Positions 23,119-59,739 of a stretch of DNA of 64,000 nt are shown here, in pieces. The DNA comes from an uncultured bacterium (lineage in GTDB: Bacteria; DUMJ01). The translations under genes and the position numbers were made by a program. Within the stretch, counting starts at the first letter, position 1, and every line of letters starts with the position of its first letter. Below the pieces are notes generated by a model that worked only from the letters and a program-made list of their open reading frames with translations, was not told the origin of the DNA and made no database searches. The stretch lies in NCBI GenBank assembly GCA_937958695.1, contig CALGNK010000013.1:1-64000 (forward strand), read 5' to 3'.

Positions 23119-25575
23119 CTAACCTGCCCCTTCTTGTGCCGCTTCCACTGGGATACGTCTTTCAAATATAAATGAATCATCCTTATAGTCTACAATAACT
23201 ATATCCCCCTCTTTAAATGTGCCGTCTATCATAAAACCAGATAACGGGCTTCCTATTCTCTTCTGTATAACTCTCTTTAGAGGTCTAGCACCATAACGAG
23301 GGTCAAAACCTTCTTTAATGAGCTGTTCCTTAGTATTTTCAGTAAATTCTAAAGTAATACCAAGACTCAGTAACTGCCTTCTAAGATCATTTAAAAGTAG
23401 TTCTACAATCTGTTTCATTTGTTCTTTTGTAAGTTGGTGGAATATGATAATCTCATCAACCCTGTTTAAAAATTCAGGCCTAAATGTATGTTTTACCTCT
23501 TCTAGAACCTTCTCCTTCATTATCTGATACTCTTCTTTTTCATTTGACTCTTGCTTAAATCCAATCTTACTTGAAGTTGAAATCCATTGACTTCCTATGT
23601 TAGATGTCATAATAATAACTGTATTCTTAAAGTCAACATTTCTTCCTTGAGCATCAGTAAGTCTTCCTTCGTCTAGTATCTGTAGAAGAATGCTAAATAC
23701 ATCCGGATGAGCCTTCTCGACCTCATCAAATAGGACAACAGAGAAAGGTCTCCTCCTTACAGCTTCTGTAAGCTGTCCACCCTCATCGTATCCTACATAA
23801 CCTGGAGGCGCTCCTATAAGTCTAGATACCGCAAACTTCTCCATATACTCAGACATATCAATCTTAATTAAGGCATCTTCATCGTTAAATAGATACTCGG
23901 CCAAAGCCCTAGCCAGTTCTGTCTTACCTACTCCAGTAGGTCCAAGAAATATAAAGGAACCTATAGGTCTCTTAGGGTCTTTTATCCCTGCCCTAGCCCT
24001 ACGAATAGCTTCAGATACAACTCTTACCGCCTCTTCCTGCCCAACTATTCTCTTGTGAAGTTCCTCCTCCATATGCAACAACTTTTCTGCCTCTTTCTCC
24101 AAAAGCTTAGTGACTGGAATACCTGTCCATAAAGATAAGACCTCTCCAACATCTTCCTCTGTAACTATAGGCTCTCTATGCTTTATATCTAAATCTTCAT
24201 TAGAAACTACTTGTAGTTGTTCCTGAATAAATCTTTCTCTGTCTCTAAGTTGAGCTGCCCTTTCATAATCCTGAGATCTAACCGCTAATTCTTTCTCTCT
24301 TCTTACACTCTCTAATTCTAACTCTAGCTCTTTCTTAGAACTAGGAGTCTCCGATAACTCTAATCTTACCTTAGCTGAAGCCTCGTCTATCAAGTCTATA
24401 GCCTTATCAGGTAGATGTCTCTCACTTATATACCTATCTGAAAGTATAGCAGCTGCCTCTATAGCTTTGTCTGTTATCTTTACCTGGTGATGAGCTTCAT
24501 ACCTTTCCTTTATACCCTTGAGGATCATTATTGTGTCTTCTACGGATGGTTCCTCTACCATAATAGGCTGGAATCTTCTCTCCAGTGCAGAATCCTTTTC
24601 TATGTATTCTCTATACTCATCAAGAGTGGTAGCTCCAATACACTGCAGTTCTCCCCTAGCAAGGGCAGGTTTTAAAATATTGGATGCGTCCATAGCACCT
24701 TCAGCTGCACCAGCACCTACCATAGTATGAAGCTCGTCAACAAAAAGAATAATCTCACCATTAGCTCTACGAATCTCATCGAGAATTCGCTTCATCCTCT
24801 CTTCAAATTCTCCTCTATACTTCGTTCCAGCTACTATTGCAGCTAAATCTAACGCAATAATTCTTTTATTATGCAAAATAGGCGGGCCTTCTCTCTTCAC
24901 TATTTTCTGGGCAAGTCCTTCTACTATGGCTGTCTTACCTACCCCGGCCTCCCCTATGAGAACTGGATTATTCTTTGTCCTCCTACACAATATCTGCATC
25001 AATCTTTTTATCTCTCTAGTTCTCCCTATAACAGGGTCAAGCCTCCCTTCTCTAGCTAATTGTGTTAAGTCTCTACCGAACTGGTTTAGAAGGGGAGTCT
25101 TAGCTCTAGATCTGTTAGCACTTTCGGCTAACATTGTTTTCCCTTCTCCTAAGAAGTATAGGACTTCACTTCTTGCTTTATCTAAAGTAATGCCCAAACT
25201 TTCTAAGATTTTAGCTGCAACCCCTTCACCTTCTCTTATAAGTCCAAGAAGTATATGCTCTGTTCCGATATAGTTCTGCCCCATTAATTTAGATTCTTCA
25301 TATGCTAACTCCAAAGCCCTCTTGGCTCTTGGAGTTAGAGTCATTTCGGGTAGGTATATACCTCCTCCTCTTCCAATAAGTTCTTCAACCTTAGCCCTTA
25401 CGTATCCCAAGTCTATACCCCAACTATTTAGAACCTTAGCAGCTATCCCTTCACCTTCGGCTAAAAGACCAAGGAGAAGATGTTCTGTTCCTAGATAATT
25501 ATGATTTAATCTCCTAGCCTCTTCTCTTCCCAGTGTTAACACACGTCTTGCTTGATCAGTAAACTTATCCCACAT
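23119..25575 (-). CDS. clpC: ClpC-type AAA+ unfoldase
   Basis: 818 residues. Two Clp_N repeats (about 3-145) are followed by two AAA+ modules with Walker A motifs GEAGVGKTA (near 208) and GPTGVGKTE (near 548), separated by a UVR-type coiled coil ([13 protein letters not shown]). A ClpP-docking tripeptide IGF is present at about 671-673, so this protein can be expected to feed substrates to ClpP. The start is ATG 25575 after AGGAG. It is the second gene of a two-gene operon with a small membrane protein and ends at a strong terminator. mcsA and mcsB are not present. Confidence 0.93.
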
Positions 25576-25588
25576 AATCAAACTCTCC

Positions 25589-25935: not shown

Positions 25936-28560
25936 TTATGATCCAGACTCTACAGGTGAAGAAGGTGCCTCTGTCTTTTTCTTAAACCTTATCTCTCCAT
26001 CCTCTACAGTGACTAGTATAGTATCACCCTCTTTAAAATCACCCCTAAGTAATAATTCGGAAAGAGGATTTTCTATAAGACGTTGTATAGTTCTTCTTAA
26101 AGGTCTAGCTCCAAATGTTGGGTCATAACCCTCTTTAGCTAGTATATCCTTCACCTCTTCAGTGACATCCATATTCATTCCTTGAGCCCTTATTTGACGA
26201 TATACCTTGTTAAGCATAAGGTCTACAATCTGCTTTATCTGCTCCTGTGTTAATGAGTGGAAGATTATAATCTCGTCTATCCTGTTTAGAAATTCTGGCT
26301 TGAAGTAGTAGTTTAACTGCTTCATTAGTTCTGCCTTTATCTCATTATATACCTTTTGGTCTTCTCCACCTTTGAGCTTCTCCATAATAAGTGGAGCCCC
26401 TATGTTAGAGGTCATAATAATGACTGTATTCTTAAAGTCTACCGTCCTTCCCTGTCCATCGGTAAGTCTACCATCATCTAGTATCTGAAGTAGGACATTA
26501 AATACATCTGGATGAGCCTTCTCAATCTCGTCTAAAAGTATCACCGAGTATGGCCTTCTCCTTACAGCTTCTGTAAGCTGTCCCCCTTCTTCATATCCAA
26601 CATAGCCAGGAGGTGCGCCAATTAATCTAGAGACTGTATGTTTCTCCATATACTCAGACATATCTAATCTAATAAGAGCATCTTCATCGTTGAATAGGTA
26701 CTCAGCCAAAGTCCTAGCTAGTTCCGTCTTACCTACCCCGGTAGGCCCAAGGAATAGAAATGAACCTATTGGTTTATTTGGATCTTTCAAACCAGCCCTA
26801 GCTCTTCTTATAGCCTGAGATATAGCCTTAACCGCTTCGTCTTGTCCAATTATTCTTTGATGCAGTATATCCTCCATATCTAACAGTTTCTTACTTTCCT
26901 CCACAGAGATCTTAGTCACAGGGACACCTGTCCAATTAGAAACTATCCTAGCAACATCATCTGCAGTAACTTCAACCTTTTCCTTAAGCCTTTCCTTTTC
27001 CCATTTTTTCTTAACCTCTTCAAGTTCCTTCTGTAACTCCTTTTCTCTATCCCTTAATGTAGCTGCACGTTCATATTCTTGAGCATTCACAGCTGCTTCT
27101 CTTTCTTTAGCTATCCTTTCTATCTCTTTCTCTAAACCTTTTATCTCTGGTGGCGGAGAGACAGTTCTAAGTCTTACATCTGCACATGCTTCGTCTATAA
27201 GGTCTATAGCCTTGTCTGGTAGATATCTATCTGTAATGTATCTATCTGAAAGAACGGCTGCATTATATATAGCTTCATCAGTAATCTTAACCCTATGATA
27301 AGCTTCATATCTGTCCCTTAACCCCTTCAATATCTCTATGGTTTCTTCTACAGTAGCTTCTCTAACAAGAATAGGCTGAAATCTACGTTCTAGGGCAGCA
27401 TCTTTCTCTATATGTTTTCTATACTCATCTAACGTAGTAGCTCCAATACACTGTAGTTCGCCTCTGGCTAATGCAGGCTTTAGGATATTAGACGCATCAA
27501 TAGCCCCTTCCGCTGCACCAGCCCCTACAATAGTATGTAGTTCATCTAAGAAGAGTATAACTTCACCGTTACTATTTATGACTTCATCTACTACTCTTTT
27601 TAGTCTTTCTTCAAACTCTCCTCTGTACTTAGTTCCAGCTACTATAGCTGCCATATCTAATGCCATTATTCTCTTATTAGAAAGAGATTCTGGAACCTCT
27701 CCCTTTACAATCCTCTGTGCTAGTCCTTCAACTATAGCAGTTTTACCAACGCCTGGCTCACCTATAAGGACCGGATTATTCTTCGTCCTTCTAGAAAGTA
27801 TTCTTATAACTCTTTCTATCTCCTCTTCTCTGCCAATTACAGGATCAAGCTTCCCTTCCCTCGCCATTTGAGTCAAGTCTCTGCTAAACTGATCTAGAGT
27901 CGGGGTAGTACTCTTTCCGGTAGGTCTTCTAGAAGATGTCTTCCTAGATTTTGTTAATTCTTCTCTCACTCTTTCGTAAGTTACTCCTTTCTTGTTAAGT
28001 ATCTGTGAGGGTAGATTCTTCCCTCTTAGTAGAGCAAGTAGAATATGCTCTGCTCCTACATAGTTGTCTCCTAGATAGCCAGCTTCATCGCTTGCCCTTT
28101 CTATAATTTGTTTAACCTCTGGAGAAACTGTCCTTTCTCCCTCCAAAGGAGAAGGAACAGCACTTTCTTCAATCTCTTTCTTTAATTCTTTTATATCTAT
28201 CCCTAGATTAGAAAGGATTTTCACTCCGATATTACCTTCCTGTATTATTCCAAGAAGTATATGCTCAGGGTTTATAGCTCCACTCCCTAATCTTCTAGCC
28301 TCTTCCTCTGCACTTATTAAAACCCTTTCAGCACTTTCAGAAACGGTATCTGAGACTGGCTCAAATTCTGGCTGATAGAAGAATCTTGTAAGTATATCGG
28401 GAAAACCACTAAAACTAAGGTCAAAGAAAGACCTTCCACTACTTAACAAACCTTGTTCTCTAGCACACTCATTACAGAGATGACTAACTGTCTTTCTCCC
28501 ATTAACTATACGGGTATATTGGACTGTGGCTTCCCTTTGATGACATATATCACATAACAT
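25936..28560 (-). CDS. ClpE-like AAA+ ATPase with N-terminal zinc finger
   Basis: 874 residues. The N-terminus has a four-cysteine finger (CDIC at 3-6, CNEC at 34-37) like ClpE and McsA. Then come two Clp_N repeats (about 75-200), AAA-1 with GEPGVGKTA (near 267), a UVR coiled coil ([13 protein letters not shown]) and AAA-2 with GPTGVGKTE (near 605). Unlike the neighbouring ClpC, the loop after MTSNIG (about 715-735) reads [11 protein letters not shown] and has no IGF/LGF tripeptide, so ClpP docking is doubtful. Start ATG after AGGAGGG. It follows hsp20 in an hspR-led operon, which suggests a heat-induced role perhaps like the disaggregase ClpB. Confidence 0.9.
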
Positions 28561-54714: not shown

Positions 54715-54743
54715 AATATATCATATTAACCCTTGCCTGTCAA
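54715..54743 (-). promoter_or_regulatory. promoter of the opp operon
   Basis: Minus strand: TTGACA (54738-54743), 17 bases, TATATT (54715-54720), with TG before the -10. The -35 lies in the final codons of the preceding deoxynucleoside kinase gene. Confidence 0.7.
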
Positions 54744-55334
54744 TGATTTTATCTCTCTTTCTATAAGAGATATCAATGATTCTATGTTTTCTATTATATC
54801 CTCTTTGGCATCATACACTACCACCTTAACATATTTAAATTCCTTTAACCATTCTTCATACGCTCTATTTAACCTTTCTATGTATTCATAGGATATTAGG
54901 TTCTCCTCCTTTCTCTTACGCTTTTTAATCCTTTCTATTAGAATATCTATGGGTGCTCTTAGATAGATTATAAGGTTAGGTTTTGGTAGATATCTAACCG
55001 CTAATCTATAGAGTTTAAGGTATGTATTGTATTCTCTTTCCCTCAATGCTATCTTGGCAAAGACCTCGCCATCTTCATATATGGTTCTATCAAGGATGTA
55101 TGACCTGCCAAGATTACTAAGTCTTAATTCTTCTTCAAATCTATTAGTTAGGAAGTATATCTGAGAGTGTAGTCCCCACCTTTCCGGTTCTTCATAGTAT
55201 AGTTTTAGATATGGATTCTCTTCTGCTGGCTCTTTGTAAAAGTCCCAGCCAAAATGTTCGGCTAAACGTTCTACTAATGTAGTCTTTCCAACTCCTATAT
55301 TACCAGAGATACCTAGGATAATCCTATTACTCAT
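54726..55334 (-). CDS. deoxynucleoside kinase, second copy
   Basis: 202 residues. The P-loop GNIGVGKTT (11-19) and the DRTIYEDGEVFA (near 84) motif with the ERS-like catalytic region are typical of the bacterial dCK/dGK family. It phosphorylates a deoxynucleoside (dA, dC or dG) with ATP in salvage. The start lies inside the last codons of the other kinase and has no ribosome site, so the two are coupled. In lactobacilli two tandem relatives form a heterodimer of dAK with dGK/dCK. Confidence 0.88.
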   Translation of the reverse strand: MSNRIILGISGNIGVGKTTLVERLAEHFGWDFYKEPAEENPYLKLYYEEPERWGLHSQIYFLTNRFEEELRLSNLGRSYILDRTIYEDGEVFAKIALREREYNTYLKLYRLAVRYLPKPNLIIYLRAPIDILIERIKKRKRKEENLISYEYIERLNRAYEEWLKEFKYVKVVVYDAKEDIIENIESLISLIEREIKSLTGKG

Positions 55335-55923
55335 AAGCTTTTATAAAGTTCTTTATTAGTAAGATTATATACCTTCTATCTTCTATTTTATTTACATAGT
55401 CTAGATTTCCTACTTCTATTTTTAGGACTGGGGAAAGACTATATTTATTCATATAATCTTCGTAGTGATTATGTAAATTCCAGAGATACTCATACTTAAT
55501 AGATCTTTCATATACTCTTCCTCTTTTCTCTATCCTTTCTATCAAAACTTCCGGGCTAGCAGAAAGATATACTACATAATCTGGTGGTTTTATGTGCTTA
55601 AGCATCTGATTATATATCCTTCTATATAGCCTTATATCTTCCCCTTTTATATTCATCTGAGCAAATATCTCGTCCTTATAAAAGAAATAATCACAGACCA
55701 AATCTTTATCAGTATTTTGTATTAATCTCCACTGTCTAAACCTATTAACAAGAAACTCTATCTGTATTGGGAATGAGTAACGTTCTACATCATTGTAAAA
55801 GTCATTAAGATAGGGGTTTTTATAGGACAATTCATACGTACCTTTAAAACCTAGCTCACTTACTATTATCCTAGCCAGAGATGTCTTTCCAACACCTATA
55901 GGTCCTTCAATCGATAATAACAC
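55327..55923 (-). CDS. deoxynucleoside kinase, first copy
   Basis: 198 residues from GTG 55923 (seven bases after AAGGGA); a TTG six codons earlier opens a longer frame. P-loop GPIGVGKTS (about 7-15) and CDYFFYKDEIFA (near 75) are the substrate motif equivalents of the second copy, though the DRT-like part reads DYFF. It is homologous to the next gene. Upstream it overlaps the decarboxylase-like gene by 17 bases. Confidence 0.85.
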   Translation of the reverse strand: MLLSIEGPIGVGKTSLARIIVSELGFKGTYELSYKNPYLNDFYNDVERYSFPIQIEFLVNRFRQWRLIQNTDKDLVCDYFFYKDEIFAQMNIKGEDIRLYRRIYNQMLKHIKPPDYVVYLSASPEVLIERIEKRGRVYERSIKYEYLWNLHNHYEDYMNKYSLSPVLKIEVGNLDYVNKIEDRRYIILLIKNFIKAYE

Positions 55924-57214
55924 TAATATATCCCTTCCCAACTGATAACAGATATTCTTTTATCTCTTCAGTTATTAATGCTCCTGGTATAAGCAACGGA
56001 ATCCCGGGAGGATACTGGGTAATAATCTCTCCACAGATTCTATTAACACTGTCTTCTACTCTAACCTTCTTTTTAGAAGAAAAGAATGCCTTACTAGGAA
56101 TATATACTAGGTTATATCTAGGTGGCTTTTCTATTATTCTGCTTGCTGGATGGGCATCTACATTTTTAAGCGCTTTCCAAAGTTTTTCTAGTGTTCTCTT
56201 TGTATCTAGTAGAGAGATGATAAATAGACAATACGCCTTGGAGGACATCTCTGCTTGTATCCTGTACCTTTCCCAGAGGTCAGAAGATAATCTATTCCCC
56301 TCTATTCCATATAATGTTAACTTAGTCTTATCCATATTAGTTTTTTTGTATACAAAGAAACCTAATCTTTCTATATTTTCTCTTAATTCTTCTATCATAG
56401 GAAGTAATCTATCTAACTTCTTTTTTCCATTTAGATAGAGATCTCTTCTTCCTATATCTATAGAAGCCAAGATAATAGTAGAAGGACTTGTAGTGGAGAG
56501 TAACATTATGTTTTCTTCTAATCTATCATTATCTACCCTATTACCCTTTACATGTATTAGTGCCCCCTGGGTTAATGAGAATCCCATCTTATGCATGCTC
56601 TGAATAACTATATCCGCTCCAGCCTCTAACCCTGATATGGGTAGGTCTCTATGGAAACTTAGATGAACCCCATGTGCCTCATCTACTATTACAGGTATAC
56701 CTTTACTGTGGGCGTACTTTGTTATCTCTTTTATCTCTGGAACTAATCCAAAATAGTTTGGATTTGTCAGTAAAATCCCTTTAATACTGTTATCAATCTT
56801 ATCTTCTATCTCTTTTAATGTTATATTTTGCGGAATTCCATACTCATCTATCTTTTCTTCTATAAAGACAGGTTCAGCCCCTGAAAGTATCAACCCTTCT
56901 ATGACGCTTCTATGAGAGTAGTAAGAAATTAGAACCTTATCTCCAGGCTTAAAAAGGGTAAGGAACGCAGACTGAATGCCCTGTGTACTACCATTTACTA
57001 AAAAATAACTATGATCTGCTCCAAATGCTAAAGCAGTAAGTTTTTGAGCTTCTAGTAAAGGTCCAATTGGATGAAAAGGGTTATCTGTTTGAGTCAATTC
57101 TGTTAGGTCTAGAGTAATAAATTTACCTTTATGTCCTGGATAGTGAAATCTTAACGGCTTTTCACTTATATAGTTGATTATAGCTTCTAAGTAAGGAGTT
57201 CTCTTCTGATTCAT
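55907..57214 (-). CDS. Orn/Lys/Arg decarboxylase-family PLP protein
   Basis: 435 residues, similar in length to Bacillus YaaO. PLP-type fold: FHYPGHKGKF (23-32), NGSTQGIQ (near 78), VDEAHGVHLSFH (near 172) and the PLP lysine in SMHKMGFSLTQ (near 208). It should decarboxylate arginine, lysine or ornithine for polyamine synthesis; the substrate cannot be told. In Bacillus, yaaO lies in the same neighbourhood as tmk, darA and holB. Confidence 0.85.
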   Translation of the reverse strand: MNQKRTPYLEAIINYISEKPLRFHYPGHKGKFITLDLTELTQTDNPFHPIGPLLEAQKLTALAFGADHSYFLVNGSTQGIQSAFLTLFKPGDKVLISYYSHRSVIEGLILSGAEPVFIEEKIDEYGIPQNITLKEIEDKIDNSIKGILLTNPNYFGLVPEIKEITKYAHSKGIPVIVDEAHGVHLSFHRDLPISGLEAGADIVIQSMHKMGFSLTQGALIHVKGNRVDNDRLEENIMLLSTTSPSTIILASIDIGRRDLYLNGKKKLDRLLPMIEELRENIERLGFFVYKKTNMDKTKLTLYGIEGNRLSSDLWERYRIQAEMSSKAYCLFIISLLDTKRTLEKLWKALKNVDAHPASRIIEKPPRYNLVYIPSKAFFSSKKKVRVEDSVNRICGEIITQYPPGIPLLIPGALITEEIKEYLLSVGKGYISVIID

Positions 57215-57877: not shown

Positions 57878-58810
57878 TTATATAGTTGTCACCTCTACTT
57901 TTGGAAGTATATTTTCCACATCCTCTTTTCTTACTTCACCTGGCTTTAATGTTAGGACATTTGCCGTTCCCATAGCTGCCCCTAACCTAAGGACTTCAGT
58001 TATGTCTAGCTTCTGTTCTAATCCAAGAGCTATACCTGCGACTGTAGAATCACCAGAACCTACCGCGTTTAATGCTTTTAAGACCGGTGGAGTCACTTTG
58101 TAATACTTTTCATTATTATATGCATATAAGCCATCTTTACCCATAGATATAACTGAAAGTTCTATGCCTTTTTCAGAGAAATATTTCAGTGCGGTCTTTA
58201 TATTTTCTATAGTATCTAGCTTTATACTAAGTATTGCCTCTACCTCTGCCTTGTTTGGCTTTATAGCAAAGGGCTTTGATTTTATACCTTCTTTTAAAGA
58301 TTCCCCACTAGTATCTAGAATAACTTTACCGCCTTTAGACTTGATAAGATTAACCAATCTAACATATAAATCTATAGGTGCTCCAGCTGGAAGACTTCCC
58401 CCCATACAGACTATAGTATCCTCAGATATATATTGTATTATCTTTGCCTCTAAAAGCCTTATATCATTTTCATTTATCTCTGGTCCTCTTTCTAATATTT
58501 CTGTCTGAGTGTTATTTAAAACATCTACTATGTTATAGCAAGTCCTAGTTTCCCCGTTTATATTAACTACATCATACACGATTCCTTCATGGTCGAATAT
58601 ACTTAGTATATGCTTACCAGTGTTTCCTCCAATAAATCCTATTACTGGGGCTTTGTAATTTAGTCCTAATAGAGCCCTAGAGGCATTTACTCCCTTTCCT
58701 CCTGGTACATATGTTATTTCTTTTACCCTGTGAGTTTTACCTATCTCAAAACTTCCATCTACAACCAAGGTCTTATCTAGTGATATATTTGGGGTTACCG
58801 TAATTATCAT
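57878..58810 (-). CDS. PfkB-family kinase, 1-phosphofructokinase or tagatose-6-phosphate kinase type
   Basis: 310 residues. The N-terminal ITVTPNISLDKTLVVDG and PGGKGVNASRAL (37-48) belong to the FruK/LacC branch of PfkB kinases; GSGDSTVAGIALG (near 252) is the catalytic signature. It would phosphorylate a phosphorylated hexose such as fructose 1-phosphate. The gene begins with ATGA overlapping the ricT stop. Its ribosome site AAGGAGG is on the minus strand of bases 58821-58827, which on the plus strand overlap the tRNA-Leu -35 box. Confidence 0.88.
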   Translation of the reverse strand: MIITVTPNISLDKTLVVDGSFEIGKTHRVKEITYVPGGKGVNASRALLGLNYKAPVIGFIGGNTGKHILSIFDHEGIVYDVVNINGETRTCYNIVDVLNNTQTEILERGPEINENDIRLLEAKIIQYISEDTIVCMGGSLPAGAPIDLYVRLVNLIKSKGGKVILDTSGESLKEGIKSKPFAIKPNKAEVEAILSIKLDTIENIKTALKYFSEKGIELSVISMGKDGLYAYNNEKYYKVTPPVLKALNAVGSGDSTVAGIALGLEQKLDITEVLRLGAAMGTANVLTLKPGEVRKEDVENILPKVEVTTI

Positions 58811-59739
58811 AGGTCTTTATCCTCCTTGACATTTTTATCTGGCAAATTATAATGAAATTGTGCCGAAGTGGCGGAATTGGTAGACGCTCTGGACTCAGGA
58901 TCCAGTGGATGTAAGTCCGTACCGGTTCGAATCCGGTCTTCGGCACCATTTTTATTTTTTATATCCTTTAGAGAAACTTCTTTTTGCCAACCATTTTTAA
59001 ATTCTAGTATTAGTGTGTTTTTAAGTACATTTATCCCCACTACTTTTCCTTCACCTAACTCAGACTCTACAGTGGATCCTATCTCTGGGAAATTTTTTAT
59101 AACTTTACTATAGAACTCAGCTTCAAATCTAAGACAACACATCAACCTCCCACAGATTCCAGATATCTTAGCTGGATTTAAAATTAATCCTTGATCCTTT
59201 GCGATCTTTACAGATATGGGGGCAAACTCCTCCAAAAACTCACAACAGCAGGCTATCTTACCACAAGTACCAAGTCCCTTTATAAGTTTTATCTCATCCC
59301 TAACACCTATCTGTCTTAGTTCTACCCTATTCATCAAAGTATATGCTAAATCTTTTACAAGCTCTCTAAAATCTATTCGCCCTTCAGCTGTAAAAAAGCA
59401 TATTATCCTATCGGGGTCTACTCCAAAATCTACTTTTACTAATTTCATCGGCAGGTTATGTGCTTTTATCCTACTCTTTACAACATTGAACAGTTCCTGT
59501 CTTTTTAGATTACGATTTCTAGCCTCCAATTCTTCTTCAGGAAGGGCTTTCCTAATAATCCTCTTTAAAGAAGCCACTCTTTCATCCTCAATGAATCCTA
59601 GTCTACAGACAATTTCTCCTATATATTCTTTATTTCTATAGGGAACTATAACACTAGAACCGCTTTCATATTTCTCTTCCGATATATATAATCCTCTTTC
59701 TGTAAAGACTTCTAATAGTCTAACTAGATAGAGAAACAA
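58807..59739 (-). CDS. ricT: PSP1/RicT-family protein whose C-terminus runs through an antisense tRNA gene
   Basis: 310 residues. The PSP1 domain (about 10-250) shows GTCGKIACCCEFLEEF (near 150) and ISGICGRLMCCLRFE (near 190), the cysteine-rich parts that bind Fe-S clusters in RicT/YaaT, which in Bacillus works with RicA and RicF in mRNA maturation and with RNase Y. The TTG start has GGAGGT seven bases upstream. Residues from about 264 to 293 are the reverse reading of a tRNA-Leu gene (58862-58948, plus strand), and the frame continues to TGA at 58807. The last 50 residues are therefore not conserved PSP1 sequence. Confidence 0.9.
   Translation of the reverse strand: MFLYLVRLLEVFTERGLYISEEKYESGSSVIVPYRNKEYIGEIVCRLGFIEDERVASLKRIIRKALPEEELEARNRNLKRQELFNVVKSRIKAHNLPMKLVKVDFGVDPDRIICFFTAEGRIDFRELVKDLAYTLMNRVELRQIGVRDEIKLIKGLGTCGKIACCCEFLEEFAPISVKIAKDQGLILNPAKISGICGRLMCCLRFEAEFYSKVIKNFPEIGSTVESELGEGKVVGINVLKNTLILEFKNGWQKEVSLKDIKNKNGAEDRIRTGTDLHPLDPESRASTNSATSAQFHYNLPDKNVKEDKDL
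58826..58853 (+). promoter_or_regulatory. consensus promoter of tRNA-Leu
   Basis: TTGACA (58826-58831), 16 bases, TATAAT (58848-58853), eight bases before the first base of the mature tRNA. It lies inside the ricT 3' end and overlaps the fruK-type gene's ribosome site on the minus strand. Confidence 0.85.
58862..58948 (+). tRNA. tRNA-Leu (anticodon CAG)
   Basis: Acceptor GCCGAAG (58862-58868) pairs with CTTCGGC (58938-58944); discriminator A then encoded CCA (58946-58948). D-loop GGAATTGGTAGAC, anticodon stem CTGGA/TCCAG with loop CTCAGGA giving anticodon CAG (58896-58898), a long variable arm GTGGATGTAAGTCCGT and TTCGAAT T-loop. The long variable arm and anticodon fit class II tRNA-Leu reading CUG. 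It is the only RNA gene I find and lies antisense to ricT. A T-rich stretch follows the CCA. Confidence 0.97.

What the first reader, a model, noticed from the sequence alone, without database searches (positions are those of the whole stretch)
58807..58948. ricT coding frame reads through an antisense tRNA-Leu gene
The minus-strand ricT/PSP1 frame has no stop codon before the tRNA and continues across all 87 bases of tRNA-Leu(CAG), ending at 58807. Roughly 30 residues of the protein are the reverse complement of a tRNA. The tRNA has a consensus promoter and full cloverleaf, and ricT is followed by an ATGA-coupled gene, so both readings look functional. Overlap between a tRNA and a protein gene of this depth is unusual and constrains both.
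Basis: partly seen in the sequence, partly recalled or inferred. Interest (0 to 1): 0.72.

Follow-up and report, generated by a model that had tools for sequence, protein, structure and literature searches.

The report
Protein gene reading through antisense tRNA
In three related uncultured bacteria the end of the ricT protein gene runs backwards through an entire, apparently working leucine-tRNA gene, so about 29 amino acids of the protein are the mirror reading of a tRNA; this is real and inherited, and most likely a tolerated by-product of tight gene packing rather than a new kind of machinery.

Summary
The ricT frame (58807-59739, minus) has no stop before tRNA-Leu(CAG) (58862-58948, plus). 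It crosses all 87 bases and the tRNA's perfect sigma-70-type promoter, and ends at a TGA overlapping the fruK start (ATGA). Both other species held for this phylum have the same layout, which excludes an assembly error. The conserved RicT core ends at about residue 262. Residues 265-293 are antisense tRNA, and AlphaFold gives pLDDT below 50 for exactly 266-310. RicT tails in other phyla vary from 0 to 116 aa. An open frame across a tRNA is not surprising: 44% of antisense frames over this genome's tRNAs are open. Protein-level selection on the tail is not demonstrable. A 386-genome survey found independent parallels: a histidine-kinase gene reading through antisense tRNA-Leu(CAG) in two genera of another phylum, and a hisA ending on a TGA inside one. 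HisA relatives have tRNA gaps of 964, 280, 40 and 37 bp, which suggests a route: the gap between convergent genes closes, the native stop is lost, and the tRNA antisense supplies the tail. Most likely the tail is translated but has no function of its own. Regulatory roles are untested.

The parts
58807..59739 (-). ricT (PSP1/YaaT family) coding frame, 310 aa, TTG start, TGA stop
   Evidence: NCBIfam NF041131 RicT 243.5 bits; Pfam PSP1
58954..59739 (-). conserved RicT core, residues 1-262; Fe-S cysteine motif CX4CCX30CX4CC intact
   Evidence: alignment with 35 RicT sequences; pLDDT about 90 for residues 221-260
58861..58947 (-). RicT residues 265-293, translated from the antisense of tRNA-Leu
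   Evidence: pLDDT below 50 for residues 266-310
58810..58860 (-). RicT residues 294-310, opposite the tRNA promoter and over the fruK ribosome-binding site
58862..58948 (+). tRNA-Leu(CAG), CCA encoded; the only CAG-anticodon tRNA among 39 in this genome assembly
58826..58853 (+). tRNA promoter TTGACA-16-TATAAT (12/12), inside the ricT tail; conserved in both relatives
58949..58960 (+). T-run directly after the CCA (probable transcription end of the tRNA); its antisense is stop-free only in the ricT frame
   Evidence: sequence; invariant in three species
58820..58827 (-). Shine-Dalgarno-like AAGGAGGA before fruK, sharing two bases with the tRNA -35 box
   Evidence: sequence, conserved
57878..58810 (-). 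fruK-like hexose kinase, start ATG overlaps the ricT stop (ATGA)
   Evidence: TIGR03168 299.2 bits

Best explanation
A functional tRNA-Leu(CAG) gene sits antisense inside a tight holB-ricT-fruK operon. In an ancestor of the genus, the native ricT stop was lost when the space between ricT and the convergent tRNA was closed. The ribosome then reads through the antisense of the tRNA terminator, the tRNA and the tRNA promoter, and stops at the fruK start codon. The product is RicT with a 45-48 residue disordered tail whose sequence is dictated by the RNA gene and promoter; the tail is tolerated and has no function of its own. SHOWN: the open frame, the tRNA and promoter, conservation in three species, and similar overlaps elsewhere. 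INFERRED: translation of the tail, the order of events in this lineage, and the tail's lack of function.
For: The frame is open in three independent MAGs, and RicT is 91-93% identical end to end. The core ends at about residue 262 and tails vary from 0 to 116 aa in other phyla, so RicT tolerates tails. The tail is predicted disordered, pLDDT below 50 at residues 266-310. 44% of antisense frames over tRNAs are open, so read-through needs no special selection. In the tail after the tRNA, substitutions are not clearly concentrated at third positions (2, 2, 4), while the promoter, SD and T-run are kept. Parallels: HK genes L068 and L066 read through antisense tRNA-Leu(CAG), stopping 0 and 14 codons after it. 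hisA in L103 stops at a TGA six codons into one, and its relatives show gaps of 964, 280, 40 and 37 bp to the same tRNA.
Against: No relative was found with ricT ending before the tRNA, so the ancestral state in this lineage is not seen; only three species are available. Both tRNA substitutions are synonymous in the ricT frame, and both indels in the C-terminal region are multiples of three, which weakly hints at maintained coding. No expression data.
Confidence: 0.76

Rival explanations
1. The overlap is regulatory: strong tRNA transcription from the nested promoter opposes the ricT-fruK transcript (polymerase collision, promoter occlusion, or tRNA/mRNA pairing with RNase cleavage), so fruK output is tied to tRNA synthesis.
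For: Perfect 12/12 promoter inside the operon, conserved in three species. fruK has no convincing promoter of its own: one 9/12 match, not above chance. The mRNA side of the tRNA can fold strongly, -29.5 kcal/mol, z -2.25.
Against: Many other tRNAs of this genome have similar promoters just upstream, so the promoter is not special. No transcription data. The strong fold is expected for any tRNA complement.
Confidence: 0.1
2. The antisense-encoded tail has acquired a function in RicT (for example binding RNA or RNase Y) and is kept by selection.
For: Frame and amino acids are conserved in three species; both tRNA substitutions are synonymous in the ricT frame; 6 of 10 variable columns are at third positions, p = 0.077 against a uniform expectation.
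Against: Conservation is explained by the tRNA, promoter, SD and T-run. No homologous tail occurs in other RicT proteins. Predicted disordered. Chance of no nonsense change in the post-tRNA tail is about 0.63 without selection.
Confidence: 0.08
3. Artefact: sequencing or assembly error, or a tRNA pseudogene, so that one of the two readings is not real.
For: All data are metagenome assemblies.
Against: Three separate assemblies agree at 83-87% DNA identity in the ricT core. The tRNA scores well above the gathering score and has a consensus promoter. RicT is intact, with its Fe-S cysteines.
Confidence: 0.02

Closest known systems
AntiFam spurious tRNA-overlapping ORFs (PMC9710616, PMC3534567)
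   Same: The peptide GAEDRIRTGT...STNSATSA is the antisense reading of a tRNA-Leu, the sort of ORF that AntiFam collects as spurious.
   Different: Here it is the C-terminal end of a genuine, domain-bearing gene with no other stop, not a free-standing spurious ORF.
Same-strand protein/tRNA overlaps in mitochondrial genomes, e.g. rps12-tRNA-Asn of Blastocystis, 7-69 bp (PMC5203790)
   Same: The end of a protein gene runs into a tRNA gene; the length varies as stop codons are lost and regained.
   Different: There same strand and organellar; here opposite strand, bacterial, the whole tRNA plus its promoter, and inside an operon.
TAR1, protein encoded antisense to 25S rRNA in yeasts (PMC3026818)
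   Same: A protein sequence encoded antisense to a structural RNA gene.
   Different: TAR1 is a whole gene with detected protein; here only a tail, with no peptide evidence.
ATGA-overlapping gene pairs with translational coupling (PMC6728339)
   Same: ricT stop and fruK start share ATGA with an upstream SD.
   Different: The stop is reached only after crossing an antisense tRNA.

Membership tests
RicT/YaaT (NF041131) | Family profile above cut-off | tested here: met
   243.5 bits against cut-off 70, residues 29-238
RicT/YaaT (NF041131) | Fe-S cysteine spacing CX4CCX30CX4CC | tested here: met
   Read in the translation against PMC6751060; these Cys are invariant among 30 homologues
RicT/YaaT (NF041131) | Partners RicA/RicF (Com_YlbF) and RNase Y in the genome | tested here: inconclusive
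   RNase Y present; no Com_YlbF match in the 98% complete genome. The partnership is defined from B. subtilis, so it is not a strict membership feature.
Functional tRNA-Leu | Class II cloverleaf above Rfam gathering score, Leu anticodon, CCA | tested here: met
Functional tRNA-Leu | Transcription and aminoacylation | not testable with these tools
   Promoter 12/12 only
AntiFam-type spurious ORF | No independent evidence of a real protein in the frame | tested here: not met
   The frame carries 262 residues of conserved RicT upstream of the tRNA
Protein-coding/RNA-gene antisense overlap | Overlap conserved between species | tested here: met
   Three species
Dual-function overlap with protein-level selection | Codon-position bias or other coding signal in the overlapping tail | tested here: inconclusive
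   6/10 variable columns at third positions, p = 0.077 against uniform; not different from the core, p = 0.48

The most novel reading that the evidence does not exclude
The nested antisense tRNA is a stable regulatory or protein-innovation device: transcription of tRNA-Leu opposes ricT-fruK expression and/or the tRNA-encoded tail gives RicT, a protein of an RNA-processing family, a new function. The same arrangement recurs in unrelated genes because antisense tRNA-Leu with G at position 57 offers an open, hydrophilic C-terminal extension.
Probability: 0.12. Interest if true: 0.68.

Novelty: new variant of a known kind. Interest (0 to 1): 0.42.

Why it matters
It is a conserved case in uncultured bacteria where a whole tRNA gene and its promoter are nested antisense inside the end of a real protein gene, with independent parallels that suggest how such overlaps arise. 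Gene finders that exclude coding sequence overlapping tRNAs (from general knowledge, not tested here) would truncate or drop such genes, so the class may be under-counted. A simple rule follows from the sequences: in this frame the conserved T55-C56-R57 of the tRNA T-loop reads as CGA (Arg) when base 57 is G and as TGA (stop) when it is A. One tRNA position therefore decides whether a gene entering the tRNA ends there or runs on.

Tried and rejected
Assembly error: rejected, three assemblies agree. Chance stop-free tRNA as the whole story: the open frame is common (44%), but a real gene in it is not. Long open frames over tRNA-Leu in other genomes (L065, L067, L069-L074, L076-L079, L100-L102, L104, L105, L108) were considered as further parallels; those scanned had no Pfam domain and are treated as shadow ORFs. 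L106 and L107 (same genus as L105), L109, L110 and L112 (frames of 8-30 aa up to the stop), and L111 and L113 (74-80 aa) were not scanned. L075 (171 aa, ends right after a tRNA-Leu) has no Pfam match and was not pursued. Selection test on the tail: underpowered. PDB sequence search with RicT: no match. Literature searches found no paper describing full-length antisense tRNA/CDS nesting in bacteria, but the library holds open-licence papers only.

Full report
OBSERVATION. On the minus strand the ricT frame runs 59739 to 58807, 310 codons from TTG to TGA without a stop. On the plus strand ARAGORN finds one tRNA in the window, tRNA-Leu(CAG) at 58862-58948 with CCA encoded; it scores 59.6 bits against Rfam tRNA, gathering score 29. 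RicT residues 265-293 are the antisense of the tRNA. Seventeen more residues lie opposite the tRNA promoter (TTGACA-16-TATAAT, 58826-58853, 12 of 12) and over the Shine-Dalgarno-like AAGGAGGA of the next gene. The ricT stop overlaps the fruK start as ATGA. The frame also crosses the T-run after the tRNA (58949-58960), whose antisense AATAAAAAATAAAAATGG contains TAA in the other two frames but not in this one (sequence). About 140 bases therefore serve as ricT codons, tRNA, tRNA promoter, probable tRNA terminator and fruK ribosome-binding site.

THE TWO READINGS ARE REAL GENES. RicT matches NF041131 at 243.5 bits against a cut-off of 70 and keeps the Fe-S cysteine spacing CX4CCX30CX4CC described for B. 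subtilis RicT (PMC6751060). The operon order darA-holB-ricT is present. The tRNA is the only CAG-anticodon tRNA among the 39 found in the genome; a tRNA-Leu(TAG) also exists and could perhaps read CUG by wobble, so essentiality is not shown.

CONSERVATION. The genome belongs to a lineage of which the held set has three species in the phylum. Both others carry the same layout: ricT frames of 313 and 312 aa, 93% and 91% identical, with tRNA-Leu(CAG) in the same place. Two correspond to public MAGs JAOACC01 and JACIXS01. Core DNA divergence is 13.7-17.0%, so the overlap predates the split of these species, and an assembly error is excluded.

IS IT MORE THAN CHANCE? Of 117 antisense frames over the 39 tRNAs, 51 (44%) have no stop, so once a gene enters a tRNA antisense, read-through is likely. 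Only this one of 39 tRNAs lies in an antisense open frame longer than 160 aa.

WHAT THE TAIL IS. Among 35 RicT sequences from relatives and other phyla, the shared core ends at about residue 262 of this protein; beyond it tails range from 0 to 116 aa and share no sequence. None of the 27 loci from other phyla has a tRNA nested in ricT. AlphaFold with 30 sequences gives about 90 pLDDT for residues 221-260 and below 50 for exactly 266-310. In the three-species alignment, the stretch after the tRNA has variable columns 2, 2, 4 by codon position. With the two tRNA changes (both synonymous in ricT) this is 2, 2, 6, p = 0.077 against uniform and p = 0.48 against the core. The two indels in the C-terminal region are 6 and 3 bases. 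Random substitution would leave the post-tRNA tail free of stops with probability about 0.63. The data cannot show protein-level selection and cannot exclude it.

PARALLELS. I searched 386 genomes with the 29-residue antisense peptide, then fetched the long frames with and without internal stops. Three real-gene cases emerged, counting ricT. First, ricT in this genus. Second, a histidine kinase (HisKA/HATPase_c) in G278 whose HATPase domain ends at residue 395, enters antisense tRNA-Leu(CAG) at residue 406 and stops directly after it; in G140, another genus of the same family, the related gene (59% identity) reads through and ends 14 codons later. The contig of the third genome of that phylum breaks off before this point. 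Third, hisA in G125 ends GAEGGI-TGA, six codons inside antisense tRNA-Leu(CAG). Among relatives of G125, the same tRNA lies convergent to hisA at gaps of 964, 280, 40 and 37 bp. That series suggests a route: two convergent neighbours move together, the native stop is lost, and the tRNA antisense supplies the end of the protein. The other long frames that were scanned had no Pfam domain; some retrieved short or same-genus frames were not scanned.

A SIMPLE RULE. In the ricT frame the antisense codon over tRNA bases T55-C56-R57 is CGA if base 57 is G and TGA if it is A. The ricT and histidine-kinase tRNAs have G57; the hisA tRNA has A57. In this genome 29 of 39 tRNAs have G57.

MECHANISM. Most likely (0.76) RicT is translated through the antisense tRNA, carries a disordered passenger tail, and hands ribosomes to fruK at the ATGA junction. 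The tRNA is transcribed independently from its own nested promoter. Steps shown: frame, tRNA, promoter, conservation, parallels. Steps inferred: translation of the tail, neutrality of the tail, order of events. A regulatory role (0.10) and a selected tail function (0.08) remain open.

KNOWN CONTEXT. AntiFam collects free-standing ORFs overlapping tRNAs as spurious (PMC9710616, PMC3534567). Mitochondrial same-strand overlaps such as rps12-tRNA-Asn (7-69 bp) in Blastocystis arise by frame and stop-codon changes (PMC5203790). TAR1 is a detected protein encoded antisense to rRNA (PMC3026818). ATGA coupling is widespread (PMC6728339). I found no description of a whole tRNA nested antisense in a bacterial gene end, but the paper library is partial. 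I class this as a new variant of a known kind, of moderate interest.

Noticed in passing
window 58773-58949 (-) and 58868-59113 (+): Two further open frames over the same tRNA (58 aa MVPKTGFEPV... antisense; 81 aa MAELVDALDSGSSG... sense) look like typical tRNA-derived spurious ORFs.
   Followed up: partly
genome G000: RicT and RNase Y are present, but no Com_YlbF (RicA/RicF) protein was found in a 98% complete genome, although in B. subtilis the RicT-RNase Y complex needs both (PMC10470536). RicT here may work differently.
   Followed up: partly
window 58826-58861: The tRNA promoter -10 box ends 8 nt before the mature tRNA, so the primary transcript would have almost no 5' leader; many other tRNAs of this genome have a TATAAT-like box at a similar distance.
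   Followed up: no
L114, L118, L120, L122, L123: Family with tRNA-Leu(CAG) convergent to hisA at gaps from 964 bp to an overlap of about 22 bp: a natural series for studying how stop codons move into a neighbouring tRNA.
   Followed up: yes
L066, L068: Histidine kinase genes whose C-termini are encoded by antisense tRNA-Leu(CAG), in two genera of another very small phylum.
   Followed up: partly
window 23119-25581 and 25936-28560 (-): Two adjacent genes resembling ClpC/ClpB-type AAA+ unfoldases, the second with an N-terminal zinc-finger-like UvrB/McsA-type stretch; judged by eye from the translation only.
   Followed up: no
window 54726-55941 (-): Two adjacent deoxynucleoside-kinase-like paralogues, overlapping end to start; judged by eye only.
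   Followed up: no
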